This document shows positions 1-53,807 of a stretch of DNA of 64,000 nt, piece after piece; position 1 is the stretch's first letter; each line of letters begins with the position of its first letter. Origin of the DNA: Halalkalicoccus paucihalophilus (lineage in GTDB: Archaea; Halobacteriota; Halobacteria; Halobacteriales; Halalkalicoccaceae); the NCBI RefSeq assembly GCF_001593955.1, contig NZ_LTAZ01000017.1, positions 248,001 through 312,000 on the forward strand. The letters are read 5' to 3'. A program made the position numbers and the translations under genes. A model generated the notes under the pieces. That model saw only the letters and a list, made by a program, of their open reading frames with translations, had not been told where the DNA came from and did no database searches.

Positions 1-108
1 ATCCTTCTTGAACTCCGTGAGCGGAATCCAGGCAAGTTCGATCTCCGGACTGTCGAGAAGGTGTATTACCAGCAGTATCGAGATGCGTACGATGTCGGCC
101 GCTGGTAA
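1..108 (+). CDS. C-terminal end of an HhH-domain protein (cut by window edge)
   Basis: Frame 1 is open from the first base and ends in TAA at 106-108, giving 35 residues that finish in DAYDVGRW. The same C-terminus, in more decayed form, recurs at 7.1, 30.4 and 41.8 kb. The 41.7 kb copy also keeps the preceding part, with a helix-hairpin-helix signature (SIPGIGPTTATVVLAF). This is therefore probably the tail of a DNA-binding HhH protein whose body lies to the left of the window. It is the only copy of the tail here without an internal stop, so it may be the functional parent. The exact function is unknown. Confidence 0.6.
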   Translation: MLLELRERNPGKFDLRTVEKVYYQQYRDAYDVGRW

Positions 109-164
109 GGAGCGTATCCGTTGATTAGGATAACAGAGGGGAGTCGCTCCTCAAGGAGAGTCTA

Positions 165-207
165 CCTTGTGCAACACCTCGTACCCAAGGATGTTTGTTG
201 CACAAGG
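165..207. repeat. Dispersed hairpin repeat, copy 1
   Basis: Perfect 12-bp inverted arms CCTTGTGCAACA (165-176) and TGTTGCACAAGG (196-207) surround a 19-nt loop, about 57 bp downstream of the HhH gene stop. The spacer between gene and hairpin, and about 45 bp beyond it (GTCCGTGCGCACA), are also conserved in the 7.2 kb copy. Confidence 0.85.
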
Positions 208-630
208 GCGACTACGCCAAGAGATAGCAGTCCGTGCGCACAGCCAGAGACGGGACAATCAATAGCTCTGTTGAATCATCAGACATAGTGTGGTTGGTCG
301 ACGTTATTTAGTGACGAGACGGAAATGTGAAGGCGAGTTCGATCGGATATAGTCTCTTCCAGAGATATACCGAAACACTATCCGTGTGATGACTGGATGA
401 GTTACTATGGTTGAACGTCTTGAGCGGCCTAGTGTCGATCTCGTTCTCACGCTTGATGATCGGAACACGCCTTGATCGTGTGTCGGCGATGGCTGTGACG
501 CTGATGCCGACTACTACGTGCTGACTGATGACGTGCTCTCAGCGTACACCTGCGAAGAGCATCTTGAGGGAACAGTCGAGCGGGTACAGGCTTAGGGGGC
601 CGTTTTATCCGGAAAAGGAATACTAGTAGG
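208..630. other. Mostly non-coding stretch
   Basis: Apart from the broken small frame at 407-595, I see no gene, tRNA or clear repeat between the hairpin and the end of the propeller gene. Confidence 0.5.
407..595 (+). pseudogene. Small frame interrupted by one in-frame TGA
   Basis: A reading frame of 62 codons begins at ATG 407 (MVERLERPSVDL) and ends at TAG 593-595. It is broken only by TGA at 473-475. After the stop it continues as SCVGDGCDADADYYVLTDDV, a Cys- and Asp-rich acidic stretch with haloarchaeal composition. It could be a decayed small metal-binding protein. No family is recognised and a chance frame cannot be excluded. Confidence 0.35.
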
Positions 631-7088: not shown

Positions 7089-7391
7089 AAAGTAGGTTGT
7101 ACCTTAGCGACTGAGCAGTATCGAGATACGTAGATGTCGGTTGGTGGTAAAGAGCGTATCCGTTGTCTAGAACCGACAGGGCGTAGTCGCTCTGCAAAGA
7201 GAGTCCCCTTGTGTAACATCCCGCATTCAAGGACGTTCTGTTGCACAAGATTGGTCACGTTGAGAGATGGTAGTCCGTGCGCACAACTGCAAACGGTAAC
7301 CCGCAGCCGGCATGCTTACAGTAACCGTACTGTGAATCTAGTTGACTTGCACCAAAGACATTTGTATGATTAGCGATAGTATCAATCGCCT
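7089..7391. other. Intergenic stretch holding hairpin-repeat copy 2
   Basis: The stretch contains a decayed tail of the HhH gene (about 7112-7144, related to DAYDVGRW but with stops), the conserved spacer, and the hairpin at 7207-7250. After it comes the post-hairpin block GTCCGTGCGCACA also seen near position 235. The last 80 bp probably hold the amine oxidase promoter. Confidence 0.6.
7207..7250. repeat. Dispersed hairpin repeat, copy 2
   Basis: Arms CCTTGTGTAACA (7207-7218) and TGTTGCACAAG (7239-7249) are the same unit as copy 1. One C-to-T change in the left arm gives a G-U pair in RNA. Confidence 0.75.
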
Positions 7392-12776: not shown

Positions 12777-13148
12777 ATGAAGTACAACCTCGAAAAAGGG
12801 TCGCACACGGTCTACGCGCTCCAATATCACTTTGTGACCGTCACAAAGCACCGTGCGGACATCCTCACCGACGAGATAGCCGAACGCATCGGTGAGATTG
12901 CCAGCGACATCTCCGAGGACTTCGGAGTGAGCATCCAGAACGTCAACGGCGGTTCCGACCACGTTCACATTCTGTTCACGGCGAAGCCCACCACGAACCT
13001 CACCAAGTTCATCAACTCGCTCAAAGGCGTCTCGTCTCGCAAGATTCGGGACGAGTACCCCGAGACTCGGCAGGCGCTCGACAGCGCGTTCTGGCAGCCG
13101 GGATACTTCCTCGCCACCACGGCTACTGGTGAGGAGCGTATCCGTTGA
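12777..13148 (+). pseudogene. tnpA: IS200/IS605 Y1 transposase TnpA, C-terminally truncated
   Basis: From ATG 12777 (MKYNLEKGSHTVYALQYHF) the frame matches the Y1 single-strand transposase. It includes the HUH metal site HVHILF and the stretch SSRKIRDEYPETR. The family continues after FWQPGYFLATT to a helix bearing the catalytic tyrosine. Here that end is replaced by TATGEERIR and a stop. The replacement DNA is the spacer of the dispersed hairpin repeat (GAGGAGCGTATCCGTTGAT). The element has lost its nucleophile and is dead. No tnpB follows. Confidence 0.85.
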
Positions 13149-13189
13149 TGAGGACTAACAGAGAGGAGTCGCTCCTCAAAGAAAGTCTT

Positions 13190-13234
13190 CCTTGTGCAAC
13201 ATCCTGTATCCAAGAAGCGATTTGTTGCACAAGG
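13190..13234. repeat. Dispersed hairpin repeat, copy 3
   Basis: Perfect 12-bp arms CCTTGTGCAACA (13190-13201) and TGTTGCACAAGG (13223-13234). The spacer that normally separates the HhH gene from the hairpin is here fused directly to tnpA. Confidence 0.85.
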
Positions 13235-13360
13235 CATGAAATGTGATCAGCGCGTACCGACGAAGCTACTCCTTGAGTAGTCCGCTGATAGCCATCAGAC
13301 CATCGAGTCGGTGGGTTAGCAGAAGATATAGTTCGACTGAATGAGTAGATAACACTTGAA

Positions 13361-18163: not shown

Positions 18164-18305
18164 GATATAATAATATGATACAACCGATTAATAGTTTGTT
18201 GGTTTCGGGAAGAAGCGTGATGGTCAAGACCAGATGGAGCTGTTTTAATCCCGACCGTAACTTCTATCATCTTAATAACAGATTCTAAACCACGTGCTGT
18301 ATACG

Positions 18306-18322
18306 CGCTCTGTATTCAGCAC
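18306..18322 (-). repeat. 17-bp inverted repeat, right copy
   Basis: CGCTCTGTATTCAGCAC is an exact inverse of 17381-17397. It is followed by a block (ending GAGGTCCAACAA) that is also partly present after the 33.7 and 53.5 kb copies. Confidence 0.75.
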
Positions 18323-18392
18323 GACTTCTGGAACCCACCACCGTTCGAGGAGGTCCAACAATGCCAACTCGCTCACCGAAAGAACGGCCAGC

Positions 18393-18782
18393 TCACAAAA
18401 TATCATCCGTAGTCTCGGCCGTCCGAAACGACTCGAGGTCGGTATACCGCAGCCCATACGGAACACGCGTTGCCAGCGGAAGTGGATCGGATAACTCATA
18501 CAACGACTCAGGTTCAAACACAACGACACGCTTGTTCTGATCGAACGTTGCCTGGTCACCCGTATATGATTCAAGCGAGCGTGACAATGTCGCTTCGCTC
18601 GCCGGCACGATCTCTTTGACACGTGCAACGTACATGACGGCTCCAACATCACCGGTGAGGTACATTCCAGCATACTCCGGAGTCTACCTGATACGGGTGA
18701 CCCAGGCAGTGTTTTCCTCGAGATGGTCCTCAACCCAGTCAGCTGAGACGAGCGCATCGCTCGCGTACTCAGTTGTGCTCAT
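18393..18782 (-). pseudogene. Chimera: rhodanese N-terminus fused to the tail of a small conserved protein
   Basis: One frame runs from ATG 18782 to TGA 18393-18395 with a single TAG at 18684-18686. The first part, MSTTEYASDALVSADWVEDH, is the characteristic start of haloarchaeal thiosulfate sulfurtransferases. After about 23 codons it changes to a different protein: AWVTRIR-stop-TPEYAG, then YLTGDVGAVMYVARVKEIVP and VVVFEPESLYELSDP. That second part has a second decayed copy at 53628-53807. It resembles a small PUA/ASCH-like fold protein, but I cannot name it. An internal ATG at 18665 could still give a 90-residue product. Confidence 0.65.
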
Positions 18783-23584: not shown

Positions 23585-24910
23585 TCAGATAGATTTCGGA
23601 ATCCAGTCATCTGAAAATGTTTCGGATAGCAAATTGCTAGCAGGTATATGAAATATCTGACCATCTATCGATGTATTTCGGTTCGTCTGGACCCCATCGC
23701 TAATAAGTAGGCCACGAGTGTCGATATTTTTGTCAGAGAGATAGCCGCTTTGCTGTGCGAACTCGATGTATTTGAGCAATTCTTCCAGTCCGCGAGTAAA
23801 AGTCCGAGGACTATCACTGTACTTGATTTCACCTAAAATAACTTCGATTAAAACATCTCGTGCCCGTGATTCATACACCTCAAAGACAAAGTCGGGTCGG
23901 CCATTGAACAGCGATGGTCTCGTTTCGTTTCCGAGGAAAGCCTCAATCAAGGAACCGTGGCGATGTTGGATATTTCGATAGCGACGGACGTAGTCCGCAT
24001 CAATGTCGTCAAGTTTCGAGAGAGGTACGTAGAACGAGAGCTTTCCACCTTGGTCATGATAGACATCAATCGTGTACTGATCGCCCTCAAGGACGGCGAG
24101 TTGGGCTGCCTTAGCTTCGATTGGTTGCAGTCGAAGTCCCTGCGAACTGAGACGACGGAGGAGCCGGAAAATACAGAAAAGCTCGAACAATCGTGGCAGC
24201 CGTTCTGGAATAACTAAGGTACTTGATAGGAGTTGTGAGATGTCCAAATCGGTGTACGCCCCTGCAAGCAATCGTCGATAGCGATCGTACAGCGTATAGG
24301 CGTCTGTGTAGAGCGGTTGCCGAGCGGTTCGAGCTGTGTTCAACATCCGCTGTGTGACTCGGATATTTTCTGCGTCACGGATTCGATCTAAATGGACGTT
24401 TCGCGCGTAAATACGATCAAACATAGCAATCCGATCCGTCGGCCAGGCCTCTGTCCGCCATTTGTAGTCAATGGCGGAGATGTCCTCCTGAACCGTCGAA
24501 TGCACTATCCAGAGTAGTTTTTTCAATACGAGATTCTCGTCAATATCGTACTCTGTATTGGGCGTCTTACAGGCGAACCGGGTCCGGTCACCAGCCGCTT
24601 CACCGTATCGGAGTCGTGTCGTTGCTGGCCAGTCAATTGCACCGCGAACCTCGCCATGAGTGACTTCCCGATCGCGTTGGTTGGCGGTCTGGATCCGTCG
24701 GAGTCGTTCCTGAAGCGCCTCGACAAACTCGACTACGTCGTCGCTGAGACAGAAATGTATGCGCTTGAGCCGGTTGAGATCTTCAATCTCTAGGTCCGTG
24801 ATATCTAGTGCTTGAGCGACCGCACGCTCGTTTACCGTGCCGTTCCGAAGATAGGTAACTAACTCCTCCTGAACTCCCTTAACCAGTTCTGTTCGACCCA
24901 GCTTACTCAT
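23585..24910 (-). CDS. McrC-like restriction subunit (PD-(D/E)xK nuclease)
   Basis: From ATG 24910 the protein has 441 residues. The start overlaps the mcrB stop in ATGAGTAA, so the pair is translationally coupled. The N-terminal half resembles the DUF2357/McrC region (AIDWPATTRLRYG, then a segment with NLVLKKLLWIV). The C-terminal part carries a PD-(D/E)xK core: Asp in NGRPDFVFEV (about 337) and Glu-x-Lys in VILGEIKYSD (about 360). McrC is the nuclease/stimulator that works with the McrB motor to cut DNA bearing modified bases. A longer start at 24967 would read far into mcrB and is unlikely. Confidence 0.82.
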   Translation of the reverse strand: MSKLGRTELVKGVQEELVTYLRNGTVNERAVAQALDITDLEIEDLNRLKRIHFCLSDDVVEFVEALQERLRRIQTANQRDREVTHGEVRGAIDWPATTRLRYGEAAGDRTRFACKTPNTEYDIDENLVLKKLLWIVHSTVQEDISAIDYKWRTEAWPTDRIAMFDRIYARNVHLDRIRDAENIRVTQRMLNTARTARQPLYTDAYTLYDRYRRLLAGAYTDLDISQLLSSTLVIPERLPRLFELFCIFRLLRRLSSQGLRLQPIEAKAAQLAVLEGDQYTIDVYHDQGGKLSFYVPLSKLDDIDADYVRRYRNIQHRHGSLIEAFLGNETRPSLFNGRPDFVFEVYESRARDVLIEVILGEIKYSDSPRTFTRGLEELLKYIEFAQQSGYLSDKNIDTRGLLISDGVQTNRNTSIDGQIFHIPASNLLSETFSDDWIPKSI

Positions 24911-27524
24911 CGGTTCGTGGTGGGAGGTCGAAGAAATCCTCTGCCTTCCGTTCGAGTCGACGTTCATCTAGTGTGAGATCGACCAGTCCAGCGTCCGTTT
25001 GTACGCTAGTACTAGTGAGTGAATCGACTAAACTCCGCTGATCTTGAGGTCTCATCCCTTCGAGCTGCGGGAATATTAGAGCAATAACAGCGTCAGTTAA
25101 CGCGGGGCCGAGGTCTTTAAGCGTCGCTGGACCGCTCGCGTTGAGGTAGCCAAGCATATCACGGACGATAGAGGGACCGATCGTTTGGTGTTGGTTGACT
25201 CGATGCCATATCACGGATAATTGCTGGAAAGATGCCACTAAGGGCTCGCGAAGTGACTCGTCGGCCTCGATCCACGCTGTTGCATAGTTCTCCTCTCTGT
25301 CCGGATCCAGAAGCGACGTTCGAACCACCCCATCATTTGTCAGAGGTGGGACACCAACGTGGATAAAGTTGAAGCGTCGCATGAATGCATAGGAGAGTTC
25401 GTAGAGTGATGCTTTGTCATACGTGTTCATCGTTGCTAGCAGCCGCCACGAGGGTGTAACCGGGAAAATATCCTGGTTGGTGACGACAGCCTCTAATCGA
25501 TCGTCAGTGGTCGACTCATCAAGCGAGGCGATTTCGATCGTCGACATCCGTTCGTAGGGGAGTTGGACGGAGTCTCCGGAGAGTACTGAGAACAACTGCC
25601 CGAACGCCTTGTCGATATCCGAGCGATTGATCTCGTCGACCACGAGCCACTCGTTCCGGATCTCACTATCCTTCCGGAAGCGGTCGAGGAAGAGACGGGG
25701 CTGGAAGACGAGTTCGTTACCTTCCGACGATCGGTTAGGGACATACCCGCCGATGGTGTCGAATGTTGTCCACTCAGCCGTCGCAGTAGTGAACCGATAT
25801 CCATCGACGAGGTCGCCGTGCTCGTCAGCGACGGTCTCGCAGACGTGCTTTGCGAGCTTGGTCTTCCCCGTCCCTGGGGGACCAGTAAAGATGATATGCT
25901 GGCCCGAATTGAGCGAGGCTTGAATCTGCCGGCGAAGGTCGGATTCCGACTCGAAGTAGAGCCCGTCGGGGAGCTTGACGGAGACGGTCAGTGGCGCCAA
26001 CCGCGCCCGAAGCGCCTCGATCCGTTGTGTGAGCGGATACTGCGAACGGATCGCCTCGTACGCGCGCTCCGGAAGTGGGAACAAGGCCCCCCGTGCATTA
26101 GTCCGGAGCACAGCCGTCCCCTCCAGCGTTTCTAGCGAGGTGAGCGTCTGCCAGTCGACCGGTTCGATTGAGCCATCGTAGCGGATCGTGATCCCCTCGG
26201 CGGGGTTGTCTCTGTGGTCGGGCCGCTCGCGATGGAGCCCTTCGACAACGGTCCCTTCGCCGACAAGCTGCTGCGTCGGTGAGGGCTTGTAAAACAGCAC
26301 TCGGTCGCCCGGCTGGGCTGTCTCGAACGCCTCGTTAAGCTGTCGTTTCTGACCGGACCCAGTGGAGGCGGTGAAGAACACCTCATCCCCTTCAGCTGCG
26401 TTCTCCACGTCCCACAGCTCGGGGTTCGCGGTGGCCCAGAAGTGGACCGGCCCGCCTCGTTCTGCGAGCCCAGCGATCATCTCGTACTCTCGTTGGACGA
26501 GTTCCGTGAGGACATAATGGTTGTTCGTCTTGATTACGGGACTTTTCTGGAGCAACGGGAGCGACTGCAGTCGCTCCCAGCTGACACCCTCGAACAATTC
26601 GTCCCACACGATCGTGATGCCTTCCACCTGTTCACCGCGGCTCGCTACTTCCTCTTCGTGAAGTCCCTGTTCAACGTGTGCACGCCCGACGATCGCCTGC
26701 GTCGGCGCATTTCGATACACGAGCACCTCATCGCCCGGCCGTGCTCGTTCGAAGACGGACTGATTCAGTCGTGGATTCCCATTGGCTTTGGTCGTCTTGT
26801 AGAAATGCTGGCCACCTTCGTGATGCCAGTTATCGGTGTTCGAATTCACCCAGAAATAACGGGTCGGATCGTCTGTACCGCCCCTAGCCGTGTACACCTG
26901 TTCCCCTTTGGTCTCACCAAGGAACGCTGCCGGTGGATTGCTGGAGGCAACCATCTCGCGGTACGCGTCCACGAGGGTTCGAAGATCGTCAACGATCGTT
27001 TCCTCTGGGGGGAACGCATCTAACCGATACTCGGTGTAGTAAATCGTAGCCGCCCCGTACAGGTCGTTCCGTCCGGAGGCGTGCGGAAATTCGACTGGCC
27101 CGGCTTGGAACCCGTCTAAGGAAAGCTCGCTCCTGATGCGTGCCGCCTCTTCCTCCAGTCGAGTGCGTGCCGCAGCTTTCCCGAGATCTTTTTTGAGCTC
27201 TGTGACACCCTGGCCTAATACCAATCGGACGCGGCCCTCCTGCGGTTCGAACAGATAGACGACGTACACACCCTCTTGCGTATTGGTCGTTTCGCGAGGG
27301 TCTATGATTGCGACCCACGGTATCGCTGTCCAACGCCCCTTCCCAACCGATCCTTTAACCTTGAATTCACCATTTTGAAGGAGGTTCTCAATTGTATCAG
27401 GAATCCGTTCCTCAACGATAGAATATGCCTCATGGTCAGTGATTCCTTTCCCGATCTGATCGATCGGATACTTGGACAGAGTCCGTTGGAGAAGAACTCC
27501 AAGGTTGGAAGAAGATGAGTTCAT
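24903..27524 (-). CDS. McrB-like AAA+ protein with DUF3578 and two EVE domains
   Basis: The 873 residues read, in order: DUF3578 (MrcB N-terminal; residues 5-180, with VKGSVGKGRWTAIPWVAIID); EVE domain 1 (about 220-335, RYFWVNSNTDNW ... GDEVLVYRNAPTQAIVG); EVE domain 2 (about 355-475, VHFWATANPELWD ... GDRVLFYKPSPTQQLVG); and an AAA+ McrB motor. The motor has Walker A GPPGTGKTK (about 547), Walker B/sensor WLVVDEINRSDIDKAFGQL and MNTYDKASLYELSYAFMRRF. EVE domains read modified bases, and the motor is expected to drive the McrC-like nuclease encoded directly downstream. It is a type IV restriction (defence) system. The middle part is more GC-rich than its flanks. No methyltransferase accompanies it, as expected for type IV. 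Confidence 0.88.
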   Translation of the reverse strand: MNSSSSNLGVLLQRTLSKYPIDQIGKGITDHEAYSIVEERIPDTIENLLQNGEFKVKGSVGKGRWTAIPWVAIIDPRETTNTQEGVYVVYLFEPQEGRVRLVLGQGVTELKKDLGKAAARTRLEEEAARIRSELSLDGFQAGPVEFPHASGRNDLYGAATIYYTEYRLDAFPPEETIVDDLRTLVDAYREMVASSNPPAAFLGETKGEQVYTARGGTDDPTRYFWVNSNTDNWHHEGGQHFYKTTKANGNPRLNQSVFERARPGDEVLVYRNAPTQAIVGRAHVEQGLHEEEVASRGEQVEGITIVWDELFEGVSWERLQSLPLLQKSPVIKTNNHYVLTELVQREYEMIAGLAERGGPVHFWATANPELWDVENAAEGDEVFFTASTGSGQKRQLNEAFETAQPGDRVLFYKPSPTQQLVGEGTVVEGLHRERPDHRDNPAEGITIRYDGSIEPVDWQTLTSLETLEGTAVLRTNARGALFPLPERAYEAIRSQYPLTQRIEALRARLAPLTVSVKLPDGLYFESESDLRRQIQASLNSGQHIIFTGPPGTGKTKLAKHVCETVADEHGDLVDGYRFTTATAEWTTFDTIGGYVPNRSSEGNELVFQPRLFLDRFRKDSEIRNEWLVVDEINRSDIDKAFGQLFSVLSGDSVQLPYERMSTIEIASLDESTTDDRLEAVVTNQDIFPVTPSWRLLATMNTYDKASLYELSYAFMRRFNFIHVGVPPLTNDGVVRTSLLDPDREENYATAWIEADESLREPLVASFQQLSVIWHRVNQHQTIGPSIVRDMLGYLNASGPATLKDLGPALTDAVIALIFPQLEGMRPQDQRSLVDSLTSTSVQTDAGLVDLTLDERRLERKAEDFFDLPPRTDE

Positions 27525-27554: not shown

Positions 27555-27692
27555 CTACCTCTTCAACCGCTCGAAGAACGTCCCGATCGTTTCGCGGAGA
27601 TAATCCACGCCCTCCTCGTCAGCTGTCCGGAGGCCGATCACCGTGATCATGCCCGAGAGCAGCGCGTGGGCTCGCTCGTGGCTGTAGGTGTG
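27555..27692 (-). pseudogene. C-terminal tail of a TetR-like regulator
   Basis: A frame without a start reads HTYSHERAHALLSGMITVIG ... DYLRETIGTFFERLKR and stops at TAG 27555-27557. The composition and the ending resemble the ligand-binding C-terminus of haloarchaeal TetR/AcrR regulators. The helix-turn-helix half is missing. The family assignment is tentative. Confidence 0.4.
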
Positions 27693-30364: not shown

Positions 30365-30545
30365 GAACAGTGTGATCGATACGTGATTGCAGCTCTCTTT
30401 GGTGGGGATCGGGCACTACGACCTTCTGATTACCCGCGACTCCTCGCTGAACTCCACGAACGAAATTCGGGTAAGTTCGGTCTCCGGACTGTCGAGACGG
30501 CGTCCTACCAGTAGTATCGAGAGATACGTACGATGGCGGCCGCTG
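30365..30545 (+). pseudogene. Decayed HhH-gene fragment
   Basis: DNA related to the 41.7 kb HhH relic: VIAALFGGDRALRPSDYPRL in one phase, then LRTVETASYQ, with stops and shifts. It is followed by the conserved spacer (GAGGAGCGTATCCGTTGATTAG) and hairpin copy 4. Confidence 0.65.
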
Positions 30546-30606
30546 ATGAGGAGCGTATCCGTTGATTAGAACCGACAGTGGATAGTCGCTACGCGAGGAG
30601 AGTCTA

Positions 30607-30651
30607 CCTTGTGCAACAGTTCACATCCAAGAAGCGTTTTGTTGCACAAGG
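30607..30651. repeat. Dispersed hairpin repeat, copy 4
   Basis: Perfect arms CCTTGTGCAACA (30607-30618) and TGTTGCACAAGG (30640-30651), with a loop similar to copies 3 and 5 (TCCAAGAAGCG). Confidence 0.85.
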
Positions 30652-30827
30652 CTGACCACGTCAAAAGAGGGCCTCTTACGAACAACCACAGAGGTCCAAC
30701 CAGTACTCTATTGAAATTTGCAGACTGTGATAAGAATAGCGTGCTGCACAGAGAGACTGAAATGCAGTAGATCTCCCCAGCTCAACCCACACGCCTAAAA
30801 CAGTGGTTTGGTTCGGCTATGAACTAC

Positions 30828-31130
30828 TCACGCAGAGTCACTCGCAAGAACCTCTGCAAGAGTTTCCTCATAGAGTTCGTCGATCCGTCCAATCAAGGAA
30901 GGATTCGACACGATGTGGTCGTCGACAACAGTGGCTAATGCAGCAATATAGCTAGTGAACAGGCCATCATGTTCGTTTACACCGATCTCGTAGGTGCCCT
31001 CGACGACGTTCGATTTTCGACCACGTCGCTCAGATCTTTTCGGGAGGGCAGCAGCAATCCCACTATCCGAATTGAATCGTTCCGCGAATCGCGGATAGAA
31101 TTCGTCGTTACCGGAACTGCATATCGATAT
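30828..31130 (-). pseudogene. Start-less fragment of a conserved protein
   Basis: A 100-codon minus-strand frame between two stops reads DEFYPRFAERFNSDSGIAAA, VVEGTYEIGVNEHDGLFTSY, then IAALATVVDDHIVSNPSLIG and ends LAEVLASDSA. It has no ATG, GTG or TTG at its beginning. It looks like the C-terminal part of a real haloarchaeal gene, but I cannot name it. Confidence 0.4.
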
Positions 31131-32446: not shown

Positions 32447-32650
32447 TTACCCCTCGAAGGATTTCAGATGATTCACTCTGGCGCTGTTCTTTACCGACAG
32501 CAGTACACTCGCAACGCAGGCGACGAGCACACACCCGCCGAAAGCGAGGACAAAGAGGAGTTTCAGTTCGCGAAGGGAACCGTCGGAGTTTCGACCCCAG
32601 CGAAGCCGTGATCTGCCGGCAGAGAATAGGTGGGTCCACGGCCGGATCAA
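32447..32650 (-). CDS. Possible small single-pass membrane protein
   Basis: A 67-codon frame starts MIRPWTHLFSAGRSRL and contains one clear hydrophobic helix (LLFVLAFGGCVLVACVASVL). It has no recognised family. It lies upstream of the lipoprotein on the same strand. It may be real or a remnant. Confidence 0.3.
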   Translation of the reverse strand: MIRPWTHLFSAGRSRLRWGRNSDGSLRELKLLFVLAFGGCVLVACVASVLLSVKNSARVNHLKSFEG

Positions 32651-41573: not shown

Positions 41574-41599
41574 TAAATCGTATACATCGAGCAAATCTA

Positions 41600-41886
41600 C
41601 GAGGTTCCTAGAGCGTTCGTCCAGCATAAGCGAAGCAGCGTTCCTCGTCAACGATCCGAAGCTCCAGTTGGAAACTCTCACGTCAATTCCTGGGATCGGG
41701 CCTACGACCGCAACAGTCGTTCTCGCGTTTCACGATCCGACGACCTACGCAGTCGGTGATCGATATATGGTTGCAGCTCTCTTTGGTGAGGATCGAGCAC
41801 TGCGATTTTCTGACTATCCATGAATCCTTACTGCACTCCGTGAGTGGAATCCGGGCAAGTTCGATCTCCGGACTGTCGAGACGGCG
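41600..41886 (+). pseudogene. HhH-domain gene relic (longest copy)
   Basis: The relic reads SEAAFLVNDPKLQLETLTSI, PGIGPTTATVVLAFHDPTTY, AVGDRYMVAALFGEDRALRF, SDYP, then a stop. In the next phase it continues as ILTALRE and NPGKFDLRTVETAY, with more stops. The PGIGPTTA turn is a helix-hairpin-helix DNA-binding signature. The N-terminal part is missing. The same gene is represented at 1, 7.1, 30.4 and 60.2 kb. Confidence 0.75.
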
Positions 41887-41988
41887 TACTAGTAGCAGTA
41901 TCGAGGGACGTACAATGTCGGCCGTTGATGAAGAGTGTATACGTTAGCTAGGACTAACAGCGGGTAGTCGCTCCGCAAAGAGAATCTA

Positions 41989-42033
41989 CCTTGTGCAATA
42001 TCCTGTATCCAAGAAGCGGCTTGTTGCACAAGG
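41989..42033. repeat. Dispersed hairpin repeat, copy 5
   Basis: CCTTGTGCAATA (41989-42000) pairs with TGTTGCACAAGG (42022-42033), with one C-to-T change in the left arm (a G-U pair in RNA). The loop and the downstream bases (CACGAAATTTGATCA) match copy 3. Confidence 0.8.
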
Positions 42034-42237
42034 CACGAAATTTGATCATCACGGCCTCAATCTTTCCTTGCCGTCAACCTCAAGCGCAGTGAATTAAAGC
42101 TCTTTGTTGGCAAGCGTCACCCGCTCCGGACTGTCAGTCTATTCCTCGGAATAGATGATCGGAAGAATACCGTTTATACAGTATATTTCTCAATCGTCAA
42201 AATCGCTTACAAAGTCTCGCTCAGTAAAATAGAGTGT

Positions 42238-53508: not shown

Positions 53509-53513
53509 ATATG

Positions 53514-53530
53514 CGCTCTGTATTCAGTAC
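53514..53530 (-). repeat. 17-bp IS-end-like motif, fourth copy
   Basis: CGCTCTGTATTCAGTAC has one mismatch to 18306-18322. As at 18.3 kb, a fragment of the small PUA/ASCH-like gene follows about 110 bp away. Confidence 0.7.
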
Positions 53531-53627
53531 AACTCCTGAAACCTATCATCAATTGAAAGATTCCAACAAGGCCAAATCGTTATATGACCCTGACCAACCC
53601 AACTCGCTCACCGAAAGAACGGCCAGC

Positions 53628-53807
53628 TCACAGAATATCGTCCGTGGTCTCGGCGGTCCGGAACGACTCTAAATCCGTATACCGGAGTCCATACGGAACA
53701 CGCGTTGCCAGTGGAATCGGGATAGTTCATACAACGATTCGGGCTCAAACACAACGACACGCGTGTTCGGATCGAACGGTCCCTGATCACCAGTGAACAG
53801 CGTGACT
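53628..53807 (-). pseudogene. Second decayed copy of the small PUA/ASCH-like protein
   Basis: DNA closely related to 18393-18570 reads FTGDQGPFDPNTRVVVFEPE, SLYEL and then a frameshift. Frames encoding LATRVPYG and DLESFRTAETTDD relatives follow. It covers only the C-terminal half and abuts the stop of the second propeller gene. Confidence 0.65.

What the first reader, a model, noticed from the sequence alone, without database searches (positions are those of the whole stretch)
23585..27524. McrBC variant with DUF3578 and two tandem EVE readers
Seen: the McrB-like protein has DUF3578, EVE, EVE and AAA+ domains in one chain, coupled by an 8-bp overlap to an McrC-like PD-(D/E)xK protein. Two different EVE modules (FWVNSNTDNW and FWATANPELW) suggest recognition of two modified bases or of both strands. 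Known type IV systems usually carry one reader. DUF3578 may be a third recognition or regulatory module. It lies among mobile scraps, as defence genes often do.
Basis: partly seen in the sequence, partly recalled or inferred. Interest (0 to 1): 0.7.

Follow-up and report, generated by a model that had tools for sequence, protein, structure and literature searches.

The report
Archaeal McrBC with three DNA-mark readers
A salt-loving archaeon carries a defence system that recognises chemically marked foreign DNA and cuts it; the recognition protein strings together three different mark-reading domains, and close relatives on the same motor carry quite different front domains, so the readers appear to be swapped like interchangeable parts.

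Summary
The 873-aa McrB homologue (24903-27524, minus strand) reads DUF3578/MrcB_N - EVE - EVE - AAA+ GTPase, and overlaps by 8 bp (ATGAGTAA) a 441-aa McrC. The McrC matches no Pfam, NCBIfam or PADLOC model, but it has an invariant PD...ExK motif and its predicted fold hits solved McrC structures first. The GTPase has the McrB NxxD loop, so this is an McrBC type IV restriction system, not a CoCoNuT. DUF3578 is not an unknown extra: it is the 5mC/5hmC/4mC reader of E. coli McrB, and its methyl-contact residues are conserved. The two EVEs belong to two old, separate lineages that also occur apart and once in reverse order. In a clade of eight haloarchaeal McrBs (GTPases 68-80% identical to the window's), the region before the EVE/GTPase part holds five mutually unrelated contents. 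The window's DUF3578 is closest to DUF3578s on distant GTPases. So this is a shuffled reader array on an EVE-EVE-GTPase-McrC chassis. DUF3578-EVE-EVE was seen only here. Reader specificities and any combinatorial logic are untested; the EVE cage test was inconclusive. New variant of a known kind; moderate interest.

The parts
24903..27524 (-). mcrB-like gene, 873 aa: DUF3578-EVE-EVE-AAA+ GTPase
26949..27479 (-). DUF3578/MrcB_N (ADAM) reader, aa 16-192
   Evidence: Pfam E 2.8e-40; fold hits 3ssc, 6gcd, 6gce, 6gcf; Y87/L91 match E. coli Y64/L68 by the alignment and PMC3874153
26466..26864 (-). EVE1 (type A, FWVNS...W), aa 221-353
   Evidence: Profile E 7.5e-52; lineage support 100/99; invariant residues in A6
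26043..26447 (-). EVE2 (type P, FWATANP..W), aa 360-494
   Evidence: Pfam EVE; profile E 6.1e-52; groups with the EVE2s of six other tandem proteins
25017..25970 (-). McrB AAA+ GTPase domain, aa 519-836
   Evidence: Profile E 6.3e-131; PDB hits to E. coli McrB 6ut6/7vsr/6hz4 and TgMcrB 6ut3/6ut5
25860..25883 (-). Walker A GPPGTGKT, aa 548-555
25413..25430 (-). McrB consensus loop MNTYDK (NxxD class), aa 699-704
   Evidence: motif definition PMC7680126, PMC11090510
23585..24910 (-). mcrC-like gene, 441 aa
24903..24910 (-). 8-bp overlap ATGAGTAA between mcrB stop and mcrC start
   Evidence: commonest spacing among homologues
23891..23896 (-). McrC P339-D340 of the PD-(D/E)xK nuclease
   Evidence: Invariant in 61 homologues
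23822..23830 (-). McrC E361-x-K363 of the PD-(D/E)xK nuclease
   Evidence: Invariant in 61 homologues
27566..27691 (-). Truncated coupling-protein-like gene fragment upstream of mcrB (mobile-element context, not part of the system)
   Evidence: identity by reading the intact copy

Best explanation
[quoted passage not shown] By homology, McrB assembles as a GTP-driven AAA+ hexamer, McrC docks on it, hydrolysis moves the complex along DNA, and McrC's PD-(D/E)xK domain cuts. Targets are chosen by a three-module reader array in front of the motor. DUF3578 most likely flips and reads a modified cytosine. The two EVE domains most likely flip and read further modified bases, probably different from each other. 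I think each reader can license cutting on its own, which broadens the target range, because the modules are gained, lost and reordered independently on the same motor. Shown: domain order, motifs, predicted folds, gene overlap, separate EVE ancestry, and front-module turnover in relatives. Inferred: GTP use, translocation and cutting (by homology), the bases read, and the OR-type logic.
For: Domain order. GTPase homologous to solved McrB, with Walker A, DEINR, MNTYDK and RRF. McrC with invariant PD...ExK and a model (pLDDT 88.6) whose top three PDB matches are McrC chains 6hz4_M, 6ut7_G and 6ut6_G at probability 1.00. Reader model (pLDDT 88.1) matches E. coli McrB-N bound to modified DNA, EVE structures, VcaM4I and YTH m6A readers. 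EVE1 and EVE2 are separate 100/99-supported lineages, each also found without the other and reversed in L166. GTPase tree: eight-member clade at 98 holding the tandem-EVE proteins, with five mutually unrelated front contents (no BLAST hit at 1e-3 between them). The window's DUF3578 is 51-54% identical to L159, L161, L160 and L137, whose GTPases are only 35-45% identical to the window's.
Against: No biochemistry exists for this protein. Module turnover is compatible with redundancy, with cooperation, or with neutral shuffling. The host encodes its own C5 (PF00145) and N4/N6 (PF01555) methyltransferase homologues, so the readers must spare those marks, or those genes are inactive or do something else. 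Whole-chain TM-scores of the McrC matches are low (0.22-0.28).
Confidence: 0.72

Rival explanations
1. The readers act as an AND gate or composite clamp: DUF3578 and the two EVEs must bind together (two modifications, or the two strands of one site) before McrB fires.
For: EVE1 and EVE2 are separated by only a short linker (aa 354-359) and stay paired in seven proteins of one GTPase clade.
Against: Each EVE type occurs without the other in many McrBs, the order is reversed in L166, and DUF3578 is absent from all the nearest tandem-EVE relatives, so no fixed three-way partnership is conserved.
Confidence: 0.2
2. Only DUF3578, or only one EVE, senses modification; the rest are non-specific DNA-binding spacers or decayed readers.
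For: Loop aromatics of known EVE/YTH cages were not recognised in EVE1 or EVE2 by manual alignment (pocket residues of VcaM4I from PMC7897488). E. coli Y41 is K62 here.
Against: Both EVE types keep many invariant residues across divergent proteins. The residue that fills the flipped-base gap in E. coli McrB-N is itself described as non-conserved (PMC3874153).
Confidence: 0.2
3. The system targets modified RNA, or has a regulatory role rather than DNA restriction.
For: EVE/YTH relatives include RNA m6A readers (4u8t, Mmi1, YTHDF2), and RNA targeting has been proposed for CoCoNuT McrBCs (PMC11090510). Deleting archaeal McrBC affected growth in Thermococcus kodakarensis (PMC13385129).
Against: The GTPase has the NxxD motif, not the NxD motif of CoCoNuTs; the Pfam scan shows no known RNase domain; DUF3578 is a DNA 5mC reader; and archaeal McrBC removal raised plasmid transformation (PMC13385129).
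Confidence: 0.06

Closest known systems
E. coli K-12 McrBC (DUF3578-type)
   Same: DUF3578 reader, NxxD GTPase and PD-(D/E)xK McrC in an mcrB-mcrC operon; Y64/L68 contacts correspond to Y87/L91.
   Different: Two EVE domains between DUF3578 and the GTPase; McrC too divergent for sequence models; Y41 is K62.
Thermococcus gammatolerans McrBC (YTH-type, 6mA)
   Same: Archaeal McrBC with a PUA-superfamily reader fused to McrB; similar GTPase and McrC fold (6ut7_G hit).
   Different: Single YTH reader there; here DUF3578 plus two EVEs, with only a weak YTH match to EVE1 (E 0.03).
EVE-McrB fusions (Bell et al. 2020, PMC7641849)
   Same: EVE fused to an McrB GTPase, the commonest EVE defence architecture, with extra domains often present.
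   Different: Two EVEs of different lineages plus DUF3578 in one chain; DUF3578 is described there as replacing EVE in E. coli.
Halalkalicoccus sp. CGA53 plasmid NZ_CP144124 McrB (L093, annotated 'DUF3578 domain-containing protein')
   Same: Only other DUF3578+EVE McrB found; GTPase 57% identical.
   Different: One P-type EVE, about 560 aa of other modules between DUF3578 and EVE; DUF3578 only 28% identical.
Tandem-EVE McrBs of Halorubrum persicum/salipaludis, Halorientalis persicus and relatives (L080, L082, L041, L081, L079, L083)
   Same: Same EVE1-EVE2-GTPase-McrC chassis; GTPase 68-80% and McrC 56-71% identical.
   Different: The front region is not DUF3578 but one of three unrelated contents.

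Membership tests
McrBC type IV restriction system | McrB AAA+ GTPase with Walker A/B and the Nx(xx)D loop | tested here: met
   GPPGTGKT, DEINR, MNTYDK, RRF; PDB matches to McrB
McrBC type IV restriction system | McrC PD-(D/E)xK nuclease | tested here: met
   P339 D340 E361 K363 invariant in 61 sequences
McrBC type IV restriction system | McrC N-terminal DUF2357-type domain that docks on McrB | tested here: inconclusive
   No Pfam match; fold search hits McrC over nearly the full length but with low TM-scores
McrBC type IV restriction system | mcrB directly upstream of mcrC, same strand, coupled | tested here: met
   8-bp overlap; a large downstream ORF in 115 of 123 homologues, McrC-like in nearly all
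McrBC type IV restriction system | GTP-dependent, modification-dependent DNA cleavage | not testable with these tools
   Needs biochemistry
DUF3578/ADAM 5mC reader (E. coli McrB-N) | Family profile and fold | tested here: met
   138.3 bits against a cut-off of 25; fold hits 3ssc, 6gcd, 6gce, 6gcf
DUF3578/ADAM 5mC reader (E. coli McrB-N) | Methyl-contact residues Y64 and L68 | tested here: met
   Aligned to Y87 and L91 (alignment, PMC3874153); L91 invariant in 12 haloarchaeal DUF3578s
EVE domain | Family profile and fold | tested here: met
   Pfam EVE 38.2 bits, cut-off 23, two stretches; EVE fold hits
EVE domain | Modified-base pocket with aromatic walls (VcaM4I P24, W82, Y130) | tested here: inconclusive
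   Conserved aromatics remain in each EVE, but the W82-loop aromatic was not recognised; no coordinates to check
YTH m6A reader (TgMcrB type) | Family profile | tested here: inconclusive
   YTH Pfam E 0.032, below cut-off, over aa 221-329; YTH structures among the fold hits
CoCoNuT McrBC subclass | NxD GTPase motif | tested here: not met
   Motif is NTYD, i.e. NxxD (definition PMC11090510)

The most novel reading that the evidence does not exclude
Haloarchaeal McrB proteins are combinatorial reader arrays: a fixed GTPase-McrC effector onto which DUF3578, two EVE lineages and several uncharacterised modules of roughly 200 aa are shuffled as cassettes, so that one system detects several DNA modifications at once. 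The unknown modules would then be a reservoir of new modified-base readers.
Probability: 0.35. Interest if true: 0.6.

Novelty: new variant of a known kind. Interest (0 to 1): 0.42.

Why it matters
Multi-reader McrBs would show how archaea keep pace with viruses and plasmids that change their DNA modifications: by swapping the sensor while keeping the motor and nuclease. The nearest relatives form natural domain-swap series on nearly the same chassis, so reader specificity can be tested directly, and several front modules without any Pfam match are candidates for unknown modified-base readers. The system itself is a recognisable type IV restriction system, which limits the surprise.

Tried and rejected
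CoCoNuT membership: rejected, NxxD rather than NxD. A chance or frameshift origin of the domain order: rejected, one open frame with EVE1-EVE2-GTPase colinear in six relatives. A recent local duplication of one EVE: rejected, the two are separate lineages with 100/99 support. The 460-aa McrC start: the shorter 441-aa start is preferred because homologues begin there. PADLOC and NCBIfam gave no call for McrC and only generic AAA or McrB matches for McrB. Profile search of McrC against PDB sequences found nothing; only the fold search worked. Mapping VcaM4I and YTH pocket residues onto the EVEs was attempted by eye from family alignments and left inconclusive. The McrB-N and TgMcrB-N structure papers were not held. 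Searching the phylum sample found no DUF3578-EVE-EVE outside this genome.
Full report
What is there. The window lies in a haloarchaeal genome (G000, contig C17, 336 kb). On the minus strand, an 873-aa ORF (24903-27524) is followed with an 8-bp overlap (ATGAGTAA) by a 441-aa ORF (23585-24910). The first ORF contains MrcB_N/DUF3578 (aa 16-192), two EVE domains (221-353, 360-494) and an AAA+ domain (519-836). It is the only DUF3578 protein and the only close McrB of this kind in the genome.

Is it McrBC? The GTPase matches solved McrB and has GPPGTGKT, DEINR, MNTYDK and RRF. MNTYDK is the NxxD form of the McrB consensus loop, so this is not in the NxD group that includes the CoCoNuTs (PMC11090510). 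The partner matches no profile in Pfam, PADLOC or NCBIfam, and homologues from other lineages match no Pfam profile either. Yet P339, D340, E361 and K363 are invariant in 61 homologues down to 17% identity, and its predicted structure (pLDDT 88.6) hits the McrC chains 6hz4_M, 6ut7_G and 6ut6_G first, with probability 1.00. TM-scores are low, so the whole-chain superposition is poor. Nearly every homologue keeps the pair: 115 of 123 distinct McrBs have a large ORF directly downstream on the same strand, and -8 bp is the commonest spacing. I conclude McrBC, with a divergent McrC.

The readers. The residue that fills the hole left by the flipped base, Y41, is K62; it is described as non-conserved. 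For the EVEs, conserved tryptophans and tyrosines are clear in both lineages. The two types differ systematically at the first strand (FW[VI]N[SA] against FW[AVI][TS][AS]) and near the end (an aromatic in type A, G in type P). I could not recognise the loop aromatic equivalent to VcaM4I W82 (PMC7897488) or the YTH loop tryptophans (from my own knowledge of YTH domains) in either. That mapping was by eye, and no coordinates were available, so the cage question stays open.

Evolution. A tree of 42 EVE domains splits EVE1-type and EVE2-type at 100/99. Each type also occurs without the other, and L166 has them in the reverse order, so this is not a recent local duplication. Seven of the eight carry the EVE pair; L043 lacks it. 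Identity to the window's GTPase is 68-80%. Ahead of the chassis these eight proteins have five mutually unrelated contents: DUF3578 (window), a 237-aa module (L080, L082), a 568-aa stretch (L081, L041, L083), a stretch of over 600 aa in L079, and another in L043 (no BLAST hit at 1e-3 between groups). In L079, three pieces of about 200 aa each match different proteins at different positions. The window's DUF3578 is closest (51-54%) to DUF3578s on GTPases only 35-45% identical to its own, with homology ending between about aa 195 and 207. The tandem-EVE relatives match from about aa 212-220 on. The simplest reading is a module swap at about aa 195-220.

How common. DUF3578 is found in 16 of 394 genomes of the order. 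Among those, EVE of these two types is present only in the window and in L093/G007, which is the Halalkalicoccus sp. CGA53 plasmid protein. DUF3578-EVE-EVE was found once; a phylum sample added none. EVE detection used profiles built from these proteins, so more distant EVE-like domains in other proteins may be missed, and the deep survey covers the best-matching McrBs only.

Context. The nearest upstream DNA (27566-27691) is a fragment of a conjugative coupling-protein-like gene whose continuation is at 32499-32650 on the other strand; contiguous copies exist on four contigs, in one case read here next to a relaxase-like ORF (gene identity by reading the translation). The mcrBC genes have no DNA match in the six other genomes of the genus apart from short GTPase stretches. 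This fits a mobile or plasmid-borne origin. The host has C5 and N4/N6 methyltransferase homologues elsewhere, which the system must tolerate.

Mechanism and judgement. I favour independent readers that widen the target range, because modules are gained and lost separately, but the data do not exclude cooperation or partly inactive readers. Published surveys note that extra domains are frequent in EVE-McrB proteins (PMC7641849) and that McrB specificity modules are very diverse (PMC11090510), so the kind is known; this combination and the resolved module swaps on one chassis were not found in the papers I could read. Supplementary tables could not be checked.

Noticed in passing
window 27566-27691 (-) and 32499-32650 (+): Two pieces of one conjugative coupling-protein-like gene, contiguous on contigs C13, C16, C17 and C23 of the same genome, are separated and oppositely oriented here, implying an inversion or rearrangement with one breakpoint just upstream of mcrB.
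   Followed up: partly
window 14-275, 7114-7298, 13127-13235, 30372-31115, 41582-42034 and 18301-18723, 53509-53794; also L231-L234: Two repeat families with many copies across the genome, often about 0.9 kb apart in constant order and flanking single small genes (a methyltransferase in L231, a cupin in L232), like cargo cassettes.
   Followed up: partly
L166 (2423-5857, -): McrB with the two EVE types in reverse order, evidence that EVE modules move independently.
   Followed up: yes
L080:2793-3510 and L082 N-terminus: 237-aa front module on the same EVE-EVE-GTPase chassis with no Pfam match and no relative in the set: candidate new reader.
   Followed up: no
L115 (2432-5398, -): McrB with a DpnI_C (Dam-replacing winged-helix) domain in front of DUF3578, suggesting a combined 6mA plus cytosine reader.
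   Followed up: no
window 23585-24910 and homologues: The haloarchaeal McrC matches no Pfam, NCBIfam or PADLOC model, so automated defence annotation will probably miss these systems.
   Followed up: yes
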